Of a DNA stretch of 64,000 nucleotides, positions 8,421 through 14,104 are shown piece by piece. The stretch comes from Halobaculum sp. CBA1158 (GTDB lineage Archaea > Halobacteriota > Halobacteria > Halobacteriales > Haloferacaceae): assembly GCF_021431925.1 (NCBI RefSeq), contig NZ_CP090371.1:1054001-1118000 (forward strand), written 5' to 3'. The position numbers and the translations under genes were made by a program. Below the pieces are notes generated by a model. The model searched no databases, was not told where the DNA came from, and saw only the letters and a list, made by a program, of their open reading frames with translations. Position 1 is the first letter of the stretch. Each line of letters opens with the position of its first letter.

Positions 8421-8591
8421 TCAGACGGCCTCGGTGAGGTTCACGGCCTCTCCCGCCTCGACCCACGCGAGGGGGTTCTCGGCGTCGTAGAACACCGTTC
8501 GCCCGTCGTCCTCGTACGCCTCGACCGTCTCGACGGCCTCCTCCGGGCGCGCGCCCGAGCGCTCCAACGGGGTATCGGTTGCGTGGGTCAT
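8421..8591 (-). CDS. Small conserved haloarchaeal protein (DUF7331-like), 56 residues
   Basis: The ATG at 8591 opens 56 codons ending in TGA at 8421. The core VEAYEDDGRTVFYDAENPLA followed by WVEA matches a small haloarchaeal family I recall as DUF7331 (a Tyr/Asp 'YEDDG..VFYDAENPLAW' core). A CATATACC box at 8618-8625 sits about 30 nt upstream on the same strand. Function unknown. The ordered core and the promoter make it a real gene despite its size. Confidence 0.72.
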   Translation of the reverse strand: MTHATDTPLERSGARPEEAVETVEAYEDDGRTVFYDAENPLAWVEAGEAVNLTEAV

Positions 8592-8743: not shown

Positions 8744-8923
8744 CTACGACTCCGGCAGCGCGAACGCGTACAGCATCGCCCCGAGTACCGCCGCGAGTCC
8801 CAGCGCCGTCGCGACGGTACGGGTCGTTCCCCAGCCCAGGAGCGCGCCGGCGACGAGTGCGGTCACGAACGCCCCCGTGGCCCCCGCGAGCGAGCGTCCG
8901 ACTCTGCTGGATGGGAGCGTCAT
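8744..8923 (-). CDS. 59-residue two-helix membrane protein directly after the halocin-like gene
   Basis: The ATG at 8923 abuts the stop codon of the halocin-like gene (TAG at 8924-8926) with no gap and opens 59 codons ending in TAG. Two hydrophobic helices are visible, SLAGATGAFVTALVAGALLG and VATALGLAAVLGAMLYAFAL, joined by a short WGTTRT loop. The zero spacing implies co-transcription and translational coupling. A small membrane partner next to a bacteriocin could serve immunity or export, but that is inference from position only; I recognise no family. Confidence 0.62.
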   Translation of the reverse strand: MTLPSSRVGRSLAGATGAFVTALVAGALLGWGTTRTVATALGLAAVLGAMLYAFALPES

Positions 8924-9862
8924 CTAACAGTAGTTGAAGTCGGTACACACCGCGTCGGCCGTAAGTCGATCGCTCCCCGGACTGCACGCGTTGCCGGCGA
9001 AGGCGGTGATAGCCGCACAGATAGCGGCGACGACCGCCCCGCAGGCGAGCGACCCGATACCGACCGTCGCGACGAGACAGATCGTTCCGACGGACACGCC
9101 ACAGCCGACGGTACACGCCGTTCGGTACAGTTCCTTGCAGTCGCTGCAGCCGATGTCCACGTCCGGTACGTCTACATCCGGCACCTCCACCTGCGTGGTG
9201 AATCCCTCGCTCTCGTCCACGTCCCCGCCGAGTTCGAGCCGTTCGGTGTCGACCCCGTCGGAGTCGACCACGAAGCGCTCCACGGTGAGGGTCGGCCCGG
9301 AGGAGGGCGACCGGACGGTGACCTCTCCGTCGGACTCCTCGACGGTCCCCCGTACCCGGGCGCGCATCGCCTGGCTGGCGACGAGGTCGCCGTCCGGCGA
9401 GAGTTTCACGGCGAGGTCCGCGATCGGACCCTCCGGCCCCTCGACGGGGAACGAGGTGACGTAGCGGTTCGGCCCGCCGCGCCGCTTCACGTGGTACACG
9501 GACCCGTTCTCGGCCACCGTCGCGCCGTACTCCGCCGCGAAGTGGGTATCGTACCGTCCGAACGCGTCGGTCGTCCTCGCCTCGTCGGCGATCCGTGCCG
9601 CCCGCTCGCCGGTCACTTCCGTCACCCGTTCGTTGTGCGGTCCCTCGCCGCGGTCCGGGCGTTCGCCGCCCGCGTCCGCGCTCGCCAGTCCGCCGAGGCT
9701 CGCGGTCCCGAACAGCCCGGCCAGGAATTTCATGAACGGTCGCCGATCGGTGTTGCGGGCCTCCGTGGTCGCGGCCCACGCCTCCGCACAGCCGCCGCCG
9801 TCCTCGACCGCCTCGTCGATCGCGTCCCGATACGAGTCGATGTCCCGTTCGTCTCGCGACAT
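8924..9862 (-). CDS. Halocin C8-like precursor (Tat-exported, ten-cysteine C-terminal peptide)
   Basis: 312 residues. A ~38-residue acidic leader precedes a Tat signal with RRPFMKFLAG at ~40-49 and an Ala-rich h-region. A middle domain (~65-235) contains VYHVKRRGG, VTSFPVEGP and LTVERFVVDSDG. The last ~77 residues begin after VPDVDVPDVDI at GCSDCK and contain exactly ten cysteines with hydrophobic stretches between them, ending in Tyr-Cys. Halocin C8 is a 76-residue, ten-cysteine peptide starting DIDITGCSACK, cut from a Tat-exported precursor whose N-terminal part gives immunity; this layout matches closely. Activity and the cleavage site are inferred. Confidence 0.82.
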   Translation of the reverse strand: MSRDERDIDSYRDAIDEAVEDGGGCAEAWAATTEARNTDRRPFMKFLAGLFGTASLGGLASADAGGERPDRGEGPHNERVTEVTGERAARIADEARTTDAFGRYDTHFAAEYGATVAENGSVYHVKRRGGPNRYVTSFPVEGPEGPIADLAVKLSPDGDLVASQAMRARVRGTVEESDGEVTVRSPSSGPTLTVERFVVDSDGVDTERLELGGDVDESEGFTTQVEVPDVDVPDVDIGCSDCKELYRTACTVGCGVSVGTICLVATVGIGSLACGAVVAAICAAITAFAGNACSPGSDRLTADAVCTDFNYC

Positions 9863-9887
9863 GGGGATTGACGCAATCCATAATCAG

Positions 9888-9897
9888 TTATATTTTT
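9888..9897 (-). promoter_or_regulatory. TATA box of the halocin-like gene
   Basis: On the minus strand AAAAATATAA lies about 30 nt before the ATG at 9862, inside a distinctly AT-rich 60-bp stretch unlike most promoters in this window. It predicts a start of transcription within a few bases of the ATG. Confidence 0.6.
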
Positions 9898-9987
9898 CTT
9901 CTTCACCACGAAATTATTTTGAACTCGGCTCGCGATCGGTGTGCTCCCTGATGGATTACGTCCCGATCCGTCCCGTCCGAAAGGGAG

Positions 9988-10018: not shown

Positions 10019-13000
10019 ATGAGCGATTCGGAGACCTCCCTCGCCGATTTCATAGGCGGCGGGGAGGGCGACGCCGAGGCGGCAGACGACGGCGACCGCC
10101 CCGCCGCGGAGGCGGCCCACGTCGCCGGCGCGGGACAAGGGCGAGTGAGCGCGGTCGTCGACCGGGAGGACATCGTCGTGCCGGACTCGACCGGCACGGT
10201 CGAGTTCATGGTCACCGCCGTCGACTACACCGTCGAGGGGACCGGGACCGAGGAGTACCCCGTCGTCCACGTGTTCGGTCGCACCACCACCAACGAGCCC
10301 GAACACGTCCGCGTGCTCGGGACCGAGCCGTACTTCTACGTCCCGACGGTCGACATCGAGGGCCGGGAACTCGCCGACGAGTACGACGTGATCCTCGACG
10401 CTCGCGAGGAGGGACCCGACGGCGAGCGCTTCGAGTCGATCCGCGGGGAGCCGGTGACGAAGGTCGTCGCGCGCACGCCTCGCGACGTGGGACAGATCCG
10501 CGACGACTTCGAGCGCACCTACGAGGCGGACATCCTGTTCCCCAACCGATTCCTCATCGACCACGGCGTCACCTCCGGGCTGCGCGTCGAGGAGCGACGG
10601 CTCGACGCCCGCGACGGCGAGGACAGAGGCCGGCTGCAGGTCACCCCCGAGCACCTGGAACCCTGCGAGGCCGACGCCGATATCCGAGTGAGCACCTTCG
10701 ACATCGAGGTCGACGACCGAAACGGCTTCCCCGAGGACGGCGAGGAGCCGATCGTCTGTCTCACCTCCCACGACTCCTACCGCGACGAGTACGTCGCGTG
10801 GCTGTACGACGCGCCCGTCGGCGGCGTCGACGCGCCCGCGGTCCTCGACGACTACGAACAGATCGGCGACCGCGACAGCGACGTCGAGGTCCGGACGTTC
10901 GCCGAGGAGGACGCGATGCTCGACGCGTTCCTCGAATACATTTCTAAAACGAACCCTGATATTTTGACGGGCTGGAACTTCGAGGACTTCGACGCGCCGT
11001 ACCTCCTCGACCGCTGCGAGGCGCTCGACGGCGACACCGACTTCGACCTCTCGCCGGACCGCCTCTCGCGCGTGGACGAGACGTGGCGCTCCGGCTGGGG
11101 GGGTCCGGACGTGAAGGGCCGCGTCGTCTTCGACCTCCTGTACGCCTACCAGCGCACGCAGTTCTCCGAGTTGGAGTCGTACCGGCTCGACGCCGTCGGC
11201 GAACTCGAACTTGACGTGGGCAAGGAGCGCTACACCGGCGACATCGGCGACCTGTGGGAACAGGACCCGGAGCGGCTGCTGGAGTACAACGTCCGCGACG
11301 TGGAACTGTGCGTCGAGATCGACCGCAAGCAGGAGATCGTCGCGTTCTGGGACGACGCGCGCAAGTTCGTCGGCTGTCAACTGGAGGACGCGCCGACGCC
11401 CGGGGACGCGGTCGACATGTACGTTCTCCACAACGCCTTCGGCGACTTCGTCCTCCCGACGAAGGGTCAACAGGAGGGAGAGGACTTCGAGGGCGGGGCC
11501 GTCTTCGAGCCGATCTCGGGCGTCGAGGAAATGGTGTCGGTGCTGGACCTGAAGAGCCTGTACCCGATGTGCATGGTGACGATCAACGCCAGTCCCGAGA
11601 CCATCGTCGAGGACCCCGACGCCTTCGACGGCGACACCTATCGCGCGCCAAACGGCACGCGGTTCCGCAAGGAGCCCGACGGCATGATGCGCGAGATGGT
11701 CGACGAACTGCTCACCGAACGCGAGCGACTGAAGGGCGAGCGCGACGAGCACGACCCCGGTTCGGACGCCTACGAGCAGTACGACCGGCAGCAGGCTGCG
11801 ACGAAGGTGATCATGAACTGCTTCACGCCGGACACAGAGGTGCTTACGCCGGACGGTGTCCGTGATATCGCCGACCTCGACGTGGGCGAGGAAGTCTACT
11901 CGCTCGACCCGGAGACGTTGGAGATGGAGACAAAGCCGGTCGTCGAGACCCACGCGTACCCCGACTACCGCGACGAGCTGGTCGACATCGAGACGGACAA
12001 GATCGACTTCCGCGTCACACCGAACCACCGGATGCTCGTCCGGAAGACCGAGACGAACGGGGTCTCGTGGGACGAGGACGACTACCGGTTCGTCGAGGCT
12101 GGCGACCTCGATCGCGCTACGAACTATCAACTCCCCCACGACTGGTCGGGGCCGGACGGCGAGGATGTCGGCGATATCGACCTCACGCGCCTCCTTGACG
12201 GCGACTACGAGGTGTGGGCGAACAACGAGGTACACGGCCACACGCTCGCGGCGGAGCTCGGGTACTACCCGAAGAAAGTAGTCAGGAACGACCTCGGAAC
12301 GACCGGATACGTGTTCTCAGCCGAGGAGTTCGAGGAGCACCGCGAGTACCTCGACAAGGTCTGCTCGGAGTTCTACGTCCACAGCGAGCCGAACCGAAAG
12401 TGGATCCCACGAACGTACGACGGCGACGACTTCCTCGACCTGCTGGCGTGGTACATCACGGAGGAGAACGTCTACACGTCTGAGGAGAAGCGGTTCGGTG
12501 AGAAACTCCGCGGCTCCGCGACGACCGTCAAGATCGCACAGAACGTCGCTCCGGACGGGGGTGAGTCGAGTCACGCCGCTATCGGCGACCTCCTCGACCG
12601 GATGGGATTCGACACGTACGCGGACGAGCGGGGATACCAGTTCACGTCGAAGCTCCTCGGTGAAGCGCTCAGAGAACTATGCGGCGCGGACAGCTTCGAG
12701 AAGCGGATTCCCGACTTCGTGTACGACGCGAGCCGCGAGCAGAAGCGACGGTTCCTCGACACGCTTGTCGCCGGCGACGGCGACCGACAGTCCGGGAACT
12801 CGTGGCGCTACACGACCTCCAGCGAGCGTCTTCGGGACGACGTGCTTCGGCTGTGTGCACATCTGGGCCTCACGGCGAACTACAACCACGACAGCGGGTC
12901 GTGGCGGATCTACTGTACGGAAGACTCGAAGAACACCCTTCGAATGCACCGCAGCGGGGGCACCAGCACGGCCGATGACGGGGTATACTGCGTTACCGTT

Positions 13001-14104
13001 GCAGACAACCACACCCTCCTCGCGGGCCGCAACGGACGGTTCCAGTTCGTCGGACAATCGCTGTACGGCGTTTCGGGATGGGATCGGTTCCGCCTGTACG
13101 ACAAGGAGAACGCCGCCGCGATCACGGCGATGGGCCGTCGAGTGATCGAGTTCACCGAACAGGCGGTGGACGAACTTGATAGGAAAGTGACATATGGAGA
13201 CACCGATTCGGTCATGCTGAGCCTAGACGATGTCTCCCCAGAGGACGTAGAGAACATCACGGTTCCCGAAGCGATGCCCGACGCGCATCCGGAGATGTCC
13301 GACCACGAACTCCTCCGGATCGCAGCCGTGATCCAGCTCTCGGAAGAGGTCGAGGACCACATCAACTCCCGGTACGACGACTTCGCGAGCGAGGAGCTCG
13401 ACGCCGAGGAACACCGCTTCGAGATCGAGTTCGAGAAGCTGTACCGTCGGTTCTTCCAGGCGGGCAAGAAGAAGCGCTACGCCGGCCACATCGTCTGGAA
13501 GGAGGGCAAACACGTCGACGACATCGATATCACCGGGTTCGAGTACAAGCGCTCGGACATCGCGCCCGTCACCAAACGGGTCCAAAAGCGCGTCATCGAG
13601 ATGATCGTCCACGGCGAGGACACCGAGGACATCACCGACTACCTCCACGAGGAGATCCAGAGCTTCCTCGACGGCGACGCCGACCTCGACGAGGTGGGGA
13701 TCCCCGGCGGCATCGGCAAGCGCCTGGACGGGTACGAGACCGACACGGCCCAGGTCCGCGGCGCGAAGTACGCGAACCTCATGCTCGGCACGAACTTCCA
13801 GCGCGGCTCCAAACCCAAGCGGCTCTACTTAGAGAAGGTCCATCCCGACTTCTGGGCGCGGATGGAGGACGAGCACGGGCTGGACCCGCAGACCGACCCG
13901 CTGTACGGGGAGTTCAAGCGGGACCCCGACGTGATCTGCTTCGAGTACGCCGACGAGGTGCCCGAGGAGTTCTCCGTCGACTGGGACAAAATGCTCGACA
14001 AGACGCTGAAAGGACCGATCGCCCGGATCATCGAGGCCCTCGGGATGTCCTGGGAGGAGGTCAAAAGCGGCCAGGAACAGACCGGCCTCGGCAGCTTCAT
14101 GTAG
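10019..14104 (+). CDS. polB: Family B DNA polymerase containing an intein
   Basis: 1361 residues, or 948 after removal of the intein at residues 601-1013. The exonuclease motifs are STFDIEVDD, GWNFEDFDAPYL and YNVRDVELC. The polymerase motifs are A, DLKSLYPMC; B, KVIMN-SLYG (split by the intein); and C, VTYGDTDSV. This is the main archaeal family B replicative/repair polymerase with 3'-5' proofreading. The start follows from the TATA-like box 27 nt upstream. Two stretches (about 10930-10972 and 13170-13330) use AT-rich codons unusual for the gene. It is transcribed divergently from the halocin-like gene. Confidence 0.97.
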   Translation: MSDSETSLADFIGGGEGDAEAADDGDRPAAEAAHVAGAGQGRVSAVVDREDIVVPDSTGTVEFMVTAVDYTVEGTGTEEYPVVHVFGRTTTNEPEHVRVLGTEPYFYVPTVDIEGRELADEYDVILDAREEGPDGERFESIRGEPVTKVVARTPRDVGQIRDDFERTYEADILFPNRFLIDHGVTSGLRVEERRLDARDGEDRGRLQVTPEHLEPCEADADIRVSTFDIEVDDRNGFPEDGEEPIVCLTSHDSYRDEYVAWLYDAPVGGVDAPAVLDDYEQIGDRDSDVEVRTFAEEDAMLDAFLEYISKTNPDILTGWNFEDFDAPYLLDRCEALDGDTDFDLSPDRLSRVDETWRSGWGGPDVKGRVVFDLLYAYQRTQFSELESYRLDAVGELELDVGKERYTGDIGDLWEQDPERLLEYNVRDVELCVEIDRKQEIVAFWDDARKFVGCQLEDAPTPGDAVDMYVLHNAFGDFVLPTKGQQEGEDFEGGAVFEPISGVEEMVSVLDLKSLYPMCMVTINASPETIVEDPDAFDGDTYRAPNGTRFRKEPDGMMREMVDELLTERERLKGERDEHDPGSDAYEQYDRQQAATKVIMNCFTPDTEVLTPDGVRDIADLDVGEEVYSLDPETLEMETKPVVETHAYPDYRDELVDIETDKIDFRVTPNHRMLVRKTETNGVSWDEDDYRFVEAGDLDRATNYQLPHDWSGPDGEDVGDIDLTRLLDGDYEVWANNEVHGHTLAAELGYYPKKVVRNDLGTTGYVFSAEEFEEHREYLDKVCSEFYVHSEPNRKWIPRTYDGDDFLDLLAWYITEENVYTSEEKRFGEKLRGSATTVKIAQNVAPDGGESSHAAIGDLLDRMGFDTYADERGYQFTSKLLGEALRELCGADSFEKRIPDFVYDASREQKRRFLDTLVAGDGDRQSGNSWRYTTSSERLRDDVLRLCAHLGLTANYNHDSGSWRIYCTEDSKNTLRMHRSGGTSTADDGVYCVTVADNHTLLAGRNGRFQFVGQSLYGVSGWDRFRLYDKENAAAITAMGRRVIEFTEQAVDELDRKVTYGDTDSVMLSLDDVSPEDVENITVPEAMPDAHPEMSDHELLRIAAVIQLSEEVEDHINSRYDDFASEELDAEEHRFEIEFEKLYRRFFQAGKKKRYAGHIVWKEGKHVDDIDITGFEYKRSDIAPVTKRVQKRVIEMIVHGEDTEDITDYLHEEIQSFLDGDADLDEVGIPGGIGKRLDGYETDTAQVRGAKYANLMLGTNFQRGSKPKRLYLEKVHPDFWARMEDEHGLDPQTDPLYGEFKRDPDVICFEYADEVPEEFSVDWDKMLDKTLKGPIARIIEALGMSWEEVKSGQEQTGLGSFM
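11819..13057 (+). other. Intein with LAGLIDADG endonuclease domain, inserted in PolB motif B (pol-b site)
   Basis: 413 residues between the Asn of KVIMN and the Ser of SLYGVSGWD. It starts at Cys (CFTPDTEVLTPDG, block A), has block B TPNHRMLV, two LAGLIDADG-type helices (DLLAWYITEEN and FLDTLVAGDGD), and block F VYCVTVADNHTLLAG. It ends in FVGQ, so the last residue is Gln rather than the usual Asn and the preceding His is replaced by Gly. Gln-ended inteins are known in archaea and can splice. The +1 residue is Ser. Confidence 0.93.

What the first reader, a model, noticed from the sequence alone, without database searches (positions are those of the whole stretch)
8744..9897. Halocin C8-like bacteriocin locus with a coupled two-helix microprotein
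The 312-residue protein has a Tat motif, a middle domain and a ~77-residue C-terminal peptide with exactly ten cysteines. Its start (VDIGCSDCK) and CTVGC spacing resemble halocin C8 (DIDITGCSACK...). Known: halocin C8 and its immunity protein come from one Tat-exported precursor. Seen here and possibly not described: a 59-residue two-helix membrane protein starting on the base after the stop codon, and an AT-rich promoter facing polB. The extra ~40 residues before the Tat motif are also unusual.
Basis: partly seen in the sequence, partly recalled or inferred. Interest (0 to 1): 0.78.

Follow-up and report, generated by a model that had tools for sequence, protein, structure and literature searches.

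The report
Halocin precursor with candidate immunity microprotein
A salt-loving archaeon carries a small inserted gene pair that looks like a secreted cysteine-rich toxin against rival archaea plus a tiny two-helix membrane protein that probably protects the producer, and the toxin precursor begins with a short tag that reappears on many other, otherwise unrelated cysteine-rich secreted peptides.

Summary
Residues 239-312 of the 312-aa protein match NCBI's halocin C8 model TIGR04449 above its cut-off, with all ten cysteines. The 59-aa neighbour starts on the base after the stop codon and is predicted as a two-helix hairpin. Its relevance is now tested: the nearest relative locus, in another family (L070), has the same pair (34% and 35% identity). 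Small membrane proteins with at least two helices follow 17 of 47 nonredundant halocin C8 genes but 6 of 308 control genes, and homologous neighbours go with the same halocin clade (11 of 12 pairs). The classical HalC8 clade has none, as expected from its published single-gene immunity. All ten congeners lack both genes at the conserved polB site, so the pair is an acquired cassette. The extra residues before the Tat motif are a leader (GGGCxExW...RR) shared with at least five further classes of Tat-motif precursors that have a Cys-free middle and 8-14 C-terminal cysteines. Best reading: a halocin C8-family bacteriocin with a separate small membrane immunity protein. Immunity and killing are inferred. 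The membrane-neighbour pattern may already be described in Makarova et al. 2019, which I could not read; I found no description of the leader.

The parts
8924..9862 (-). Precursor of a halocin C8-family bacteriocin, 312 aa
   Evidence: TIGR04449 halocin_C8_dom, 30.5 bits against cut-off 24, residues 239-312; BLASTP to L070 E 8e-45
9746..9862 (-). N-terminal leader, residues 1-39, before the Tat motif; core GGGCAEAW
   Evidence: Alignment A1 of ten leaders; class-wide search; one match in the whole own genome
9788..9799 (-). GGGC core of the leader (residues 22-25)
   Evidence: Invariant G23, G24, C25, E27, R40, R41 in ten aligned leaders
9668..9745 (-). Tat-type signal, RRPFMKFLAGLFGTASLGGLASADAG (residues 40-65 approx.)
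   Evidence: Motif by eye and alignment with Tat signals of homologues; no signal-peptide predictor available
9158..9667 (-). Cys-free middle domain (residues 66-235); residues about 81-147 remotely resemble the N-terminal part of HalI
   Evidence: hhalign probability 91.4, E 9e-7 over 67 columns against classical HalC8-clade middle domains; no BLASTP similarity there
8927..9157 (-). Predicted mature ten-cysteine peptide, residues 236-312, about 7.5 kDa
   Evidence: TIGR04449 match; ten Cys conserved in homologues; cleavage point inferred from HalC8
8744..8923 (-). 59-aa two-helix membrane microprotein, candidate immunity protein
   Evidence: AlphaFold2 helices 5-28 and 33-55, mean pLDDT 81; homologue next to L070 halocin, 35% identity over 57 residues without gaps; GC3 0.87
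8921..8926 (-). TAG-ATG junction between the two genes (no intergenic base)
   Evidence: Sequence
9888..9897 (-). TATA-box-like element AAAAATATAA, 25 nt before the start codon; leaderless transcript likely
   Evidence: Sequence; interpretation from general knowledge of haloarchaeal promoters

Best explanation
The locus is a two-gene bacteriocin cassette. Gene 1 encodes a halocin C8-family precursor. It has a cytosolic leader (GGGCAEAW), a Tat signal, a Cys-free middle domain distantly related to HalI, and a C-terminal ten-cysteine peptide. The folded precursor would leave by the Tat route, be cut near residue 235, and release a roughly 77-residue disulfide-rich peptide that damages the membrane of related haloarchaea. 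Gene 2, translated right after gene 1, encodes a 59-residue two-helix membrane protein that most likely makes the producer immune, together with or in place of the middle domain. Shown here: the domain match, ten-cysteine conservation, the conserved gene pair, the statistical link of halocin C8 genes with downstream small membrane proteins, their clade-specific pairing, the insertion at polB, and the shared leader. Inferred: export, cleavage, killing, immunity, and a leader-binding factor.
For: TIGR04449 above cut-off. Each of the ten Cys present in 44-65 of 65 homologues. Window and L070 loci, from different families, share both genes and are sisters in the halocin tree (94/92). Downstream same-strand small proteins with at least 2 TM: 17/47 halocin loci against 6/308 control genes, p 4e-12; upstream or divergent 0/47, downstream opposite strand 4/47. 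Homologous membrane neighbours fall within the same halocin clade in 11 of 12 pairs, permutation p 5e-5. The classical HalC8 clade, with published HalI self-immunity, has no small TM neighbour in 7 of 7 loci. All ten congeners lack both genes while the flanking genes are conserved. Two-helix hairpin model.
Against: No activity or immunity data for any member except HalC8 and its close relatives. About 60% of nonredundant halocin C8 loci have no small TM neighbour that I could detect, so it is not obligatory. The middle domain is remotely HalI-like, so gene 1 might provide immunity alone. The C-terminal fold could not be modelled well (pLDDT 61). The hydropathy-based TM count is crude.
Confidence: 0.7

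Rival explanations
1. The microprotein is not an immunity protein but an active partner: a second membrane peptide of a two-component bacteriocin, or a helper for export or release.
For: It is tiny, hydrophobic and glycine-rich; Pfam's Microcin V model gives a weak below-cut-off match (17.5 bits, cut-off 27, E 0.006). The TAG-ATG junction would give near-equal amounts of both products.
Against: It has no signal or leader and no cysteines, so there is no obvious route out. Neighbours in other halocin clades are unrelated in sequence and vary from 2 to 4 TM helices, which fits immunity better than a shared mechanism.
Confidence: 0.15
2. Immunity comes only from the middle domain of the precursor, as in HalC8, and the microprotein is an accessory or a decaying passenger.
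For: Profile comparison links the middle domain to HalI (probability 91, E 9e-7, 67 columns). HalC8 has published single-gene immunity (Sun et al. 2005, cited in PMC8628083).
Against: The microprotein is kept as a pair in L070, in another family, without gaps over 57 residues, has coding-type GC3, and small TM neighbours are 28 times enriched in odds at halocin loci.
Confidence: 0.12
3. The protein is a Cys-rich secreted protein with another role (signalling, metal or redox binding, adhesion), not a toxin.
For: I found no activity data for divergent members; the nearest relative tested in the literature is HalC8, only remotely similar overall. Several leader-bearing classes have no known activity.
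Against: The ten-cysteine domain is homologous to a purified antimicrobial peptide; patchy distribution (0 of 10 congeners; 47 of 391 genomes), cassette insertion and paired, clade-specific membrane neighbours are typical of bacteriocins.
Confidence: 0.1

Closest known systems
Halocin C8 (ProC8, HalC8/HalI; TIGR04449)
   Same: Tat-type precursor, Cys-free middle domain, C-terminal ten-cysteine peptide of about 76-77 residues starting D-I-x-x-C-x-x-C-K; TIGR04449 above cut-off; middle domain remotely alike
   Different: 39-residue leader before the Tat motif; separate 59-aa membrane gene directly downstream, absent from all seven HalC8-clade loci examined; low sequence identity outside the Cys core
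Other Cys-rich haloarchaeal Tat precursors with the GGGCxExW leader (e.g. WP_124897069.1 of Haloplanus sp. GX21, annotated 'hypothetical protein')
   Same: Same leader, RR motif, Cys-free middle, 8-14 Cys in the last 100 residues; some are followed by small membrane proteins
   Different: C-terminal cysteine domains not detectably related to halocin C8; no Pfam or NCBIfam family above cut-off
Class II bacteriocin and immunity gene pairs of Gram-positive bacteria (analogy only)
   Same: Small secreted peptide gene followed by a small dedicated immunity gene in one operon
   Different: Archaeal, Tat-type precursor with a large middle domain and ten cysteines; no sequence relation tested

Membership tests
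Halocin C8 family (TIGR04449) | C-terminal domain scores above the curated cut-off of TIGR04449 | tested here: met
   30.5 bits against 24, residues 239-312, model positions 1-69 of 69
Halocin C8 family (TIGR04449) | Ten cysteines at conserved positions of the C-terminal peptide | tested here: met
   Ten Cys, each aligned to Cys in 44-65 of 65 homologues
Halocin C8 family (TIGR04449) | Tat-type signal in the precursor | tested here: met
   RR at residues 40-41 followed by a hydrophobic stretch ending ASADA, aligned with homologues; motif only, export not tested
Halocin C8 (HalC8/HalI) sensu stricto | N-terminal half of the precursor is the immunity protein HalI | tested here: inconclusive
   No BLASTP similarity in the middle domain; hhalign probability 91, E 9e-7 over 67 columns; immunity not testable
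Halocin C8 (HalC8/HalI) sensu stricto | Belongs to the classical HalC8 clade | tested here: not met
   Groups with L070, outside the clade holding the 283-aa ProC8-like L005 (few columns, weak deep forks)
Bacteriocin with separate immunity gene | Adjacent same-strand gene co-conserved with the toxin gene | tested here: met
   Pair kept in L070; enrichment 17/47 against 6/308; clade pairing 11/12
Bacteriocin with separate immunity gene | Neighbour protects against the toxin; peptide kills | not testable with these tools
   Needs wet-lab assays

The most novel reading that the evidence does not exclude
The 39-residue GGGCxExW segment before the Tat motif is a portable cytosolic leader that marks a broad class of haloarchaeal Cys-rich secreted bacteriocins of several unrelated C-terminal types. 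It would be read by a common maturation, folding or export factor before Tat transport, with small membrane proteins as paired immunity genes. The locus in the window is one member of this class.
Probability: 0.45. Interest if true: 0.72.

Novelty: new variant of a known kind. Interest (0 to 1): 0.55.

Why it matters
Halocin C8 is the only halocin of this family with a described immunity mechanism that I know of, one gene doing both jobs. A conserved, clade-matched set of small membrane neighbours elsewhere in the family would mean that many halocin C8 relatives use separate immunity genes, which can be tested in Haloferax volcanii. The shared leader is a search key for unannotated archaeal cysteine-rich peptides and points to a dedicated handling step before Tat export that can be looked for genetically.

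Tried and rejected
Microprotein as a chance ORF: rejected, because it is co-conserved without gaps in L070 and has coding-type GC3. Searching relatives with the microprotein alone: only weak matches (best E 0.002, in a long unrelated frame), as expected for a short hydrophobic protein, so neighbourhood tests were used instead. A large membrane protein near L070 (motif RGYLVPGTP) as a required accessory: rejected, since it occurs in 344 of 391 genomes and not in the window's genome. Both genome-contig scans and one viral-contig scan found no relatives, so the organism and named relatives could not be given. The PDB search gave nothing. AlphaFold2 on the Cys peptide from one sequence gave low confidence and was not used. 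In the class-wide leader search, matches weaker than about 1e-7 are mostly acidic low-complexity frames with stops and were not counted. Makarova et al. 2019 (mBio 10:e00715-19) is not held; from memory it expands the halocin C8 family and may describe membrane neighbours, so that part is not claimed as new.

Full report
What is there. On the minus strand, divergent from polB, lies a 312-codon gene (8924-9862) followed without an intergenic base by a 59-codon gene (8744-8923; TAG-ATG). The precursor scores above the curated cut-off of NCBI's halocin C8 domain model TIGR04449 over its last 74 residues (30.5 bits against 24); Pfam has no match. The last 77 residues carry ten cysteines and the stretch from the RR motif to them carries none. 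Before the RR motif there are 39 further residues with the core DGGGCAEAW. The AT-rich stretch 9876-9927 (29% GC) holds AAAAATATAA 25 nt before the ATG, which fits a haloarchaeal TATA box and a leaderless transcript of this gene (inference from general knowledge).

Family membership. TIGR04449 occurs in 47 of 391 Halobacteria genomes sampled, at 65 places, and in none of the ten congeners examined. The ten cysteines of the window align with cysteine in 44-65 of the 65 homologues. In a tree of the C-terminal domains the window's protein is the sister of L070 from another family of the order (support 94/92), outside the classical HalC8 clade; the tree has few columns and its deep forks are weak. 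L005 in the classical clade has an open frame from which a suitable ATG gives 283 residues, the published length of ProC8 (PMC11509114). The window's middle domain is not similar to that protein by BLASTP. A profile comparison does link its residues of about 81-147 to the start of the HalC8-clade middle domain (probability 91, E 9e-7), so a distant HalI relationship is likely.

The microprotein. It is predicted as two helices, 5-28 and 33-55, with mean pLDDT 81 from the single sequence. Next to the L070 halocin, three bases after its stop, lies a 60-residue relative, 35% identical over 57 residues without gaps, while the two halocins are 34% identical (E 8e-45). In L070 the Tat part lies in another frame upstream, so that copy may be broken. 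More widely, a same-strand protein of 40-135 residues with at least two predicted TM helices starts within 120 nt downstream of 17 of 47 nonredundant halocin C8 genes, against 6 of 308 control genes from the same loci and the window (odds ratio 28, p 4e-12). At the same halocin loci such ORFs are found upstream or divergent in none, and downstream on the other strand in 4. The neighbours are of several unrelated families. Of 12 homologous pairs among them, 11 join halocins of the same clade (permutation p 5e-5), and several of these pairs cross family borders. This is the pattern expected of toxin and immunity pairs. The permutation does not remove shared ancestry, so the p value is a guide only. 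The classical HalC8 clade, whose immunity is known to come from the precursor itself (Sun et al. 2005, as cited in PMC8628083), has no small membrane neighbour in seven of seven loci; one of them, L017, is followed by a 263-residue membrane protein of a widespread family.

Acquisition. In all ten congeners the genes flanking the site (p168, p56 and polB) are conserved in order, with about 240 bp between the start of p56 and polB in the loci measured, while the window has 1427 bp there. The promoter-proximal sequences of p56 and polB are conserved on both sides, and the extra DNA is the two-gene cassette.

The leader. An alignment of ten such leaders has invariant G23, G24, C25, E27 and RR. A class-wide profile search gave clear matches down to about 1e-9. 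By motif, five of the 65 halocin C8 loci carry it. The intact Tat-motif proteins that I read with this leader (16 compared) have 8-14 cysteines in the last 100 residues and none between RR and that region. The leader was the search key, but the cysteine architecture was not, so the latter is independent evidence. Outside leader and signal, proteins of different classes are mostly unrelated by BLASTP (6 of 109 between-class pairs similar; leaders 92 of 109). Several of the six join classes B, E and H, which may be one superfamily; I therefore count at least five C-terminal types beyond halocin C8. The leader is not a general Tat feature: the window's genome has a single match. None of the proteins scanned has a Pfam or NCBIfam model over the leader above cut-off, and the one named record found, WP_124897069.1 of Haloplanus sp. 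GX21, is a 'hypothetical protein'. Several are followed by small membrane proteins (L090, L091, L097, L114, L129).

Mechanism. I propose export by Tat, cleavage before D236, attack on the membrane of related haloarchaea (HalC8 rounds and lyses sensitive cells, Li et al. 2003 as cited in PMC6759562), and protection of the producer by the two-helix protein, perhaps with help from the middle domain. The leader stays in the cytosol with the signal peptide and would act before export, for example in folding, disulfide timing or targeting. None of these steps is shown by sequence.

Novelty. Membership in the halocin C8 family is not new. A separate, clade-matched membrane neighbour differs from the published HalC8 system, but it may be covered by Makarova et al. 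2019, which I could not read. I found no description of the shared leader in the searches made.

Noticed in passing
L116-L118, L120, L122-L125, L130 (mostly 226-252 aa frames): The GGGCxE leader also starts proteins without a clear Tat signal, conserved across genera of one family. The C-terminal domain of one group (L116, L117, L130) resembles, by eye, that of a membrane protein with motif RGYLVPGTP found near some halocin genes.
   Followed up: partly
L133:2086-3045 (+); also L017 downstream ORF: Membrane protein with EYTGxNRCxACTVVN and RGYLVPGTP motifs near halocin genes; present in 344 of 391 Halobacteria genomes but with no match in the window's genome; no Pfam or NCBIfam family.
   Followed up: partly
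L078 and L085, downstream of halocin C8-domain genes: Proteins of 415-423 aa directly downstream, a DUF6498 family member in L078 and a similar one in L085: a possible further type of large membrane neighbour.
   Followed up: no
L113, L107, L104, L112, L126: Several leader-bearing genes look broken (stop or frame change after the leader), suggesting frequent decay of these precursors.
   Followed up: no
window 10019-14104 (+): The polB frame (ORF listed from 9941) is long and contains an intein-like insertion (CFTPDTEVLTPDG ... RFQFVGQS).
   Followed up: no
window 8421-8591 (-): A 56-residue protein (MTHATDTPLERSGA...) beside the cassette is 78-84% identical in all ten congeners; short conserved haloarchaeal protein of unknown function with a conserved promoter.
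   Followed up: no
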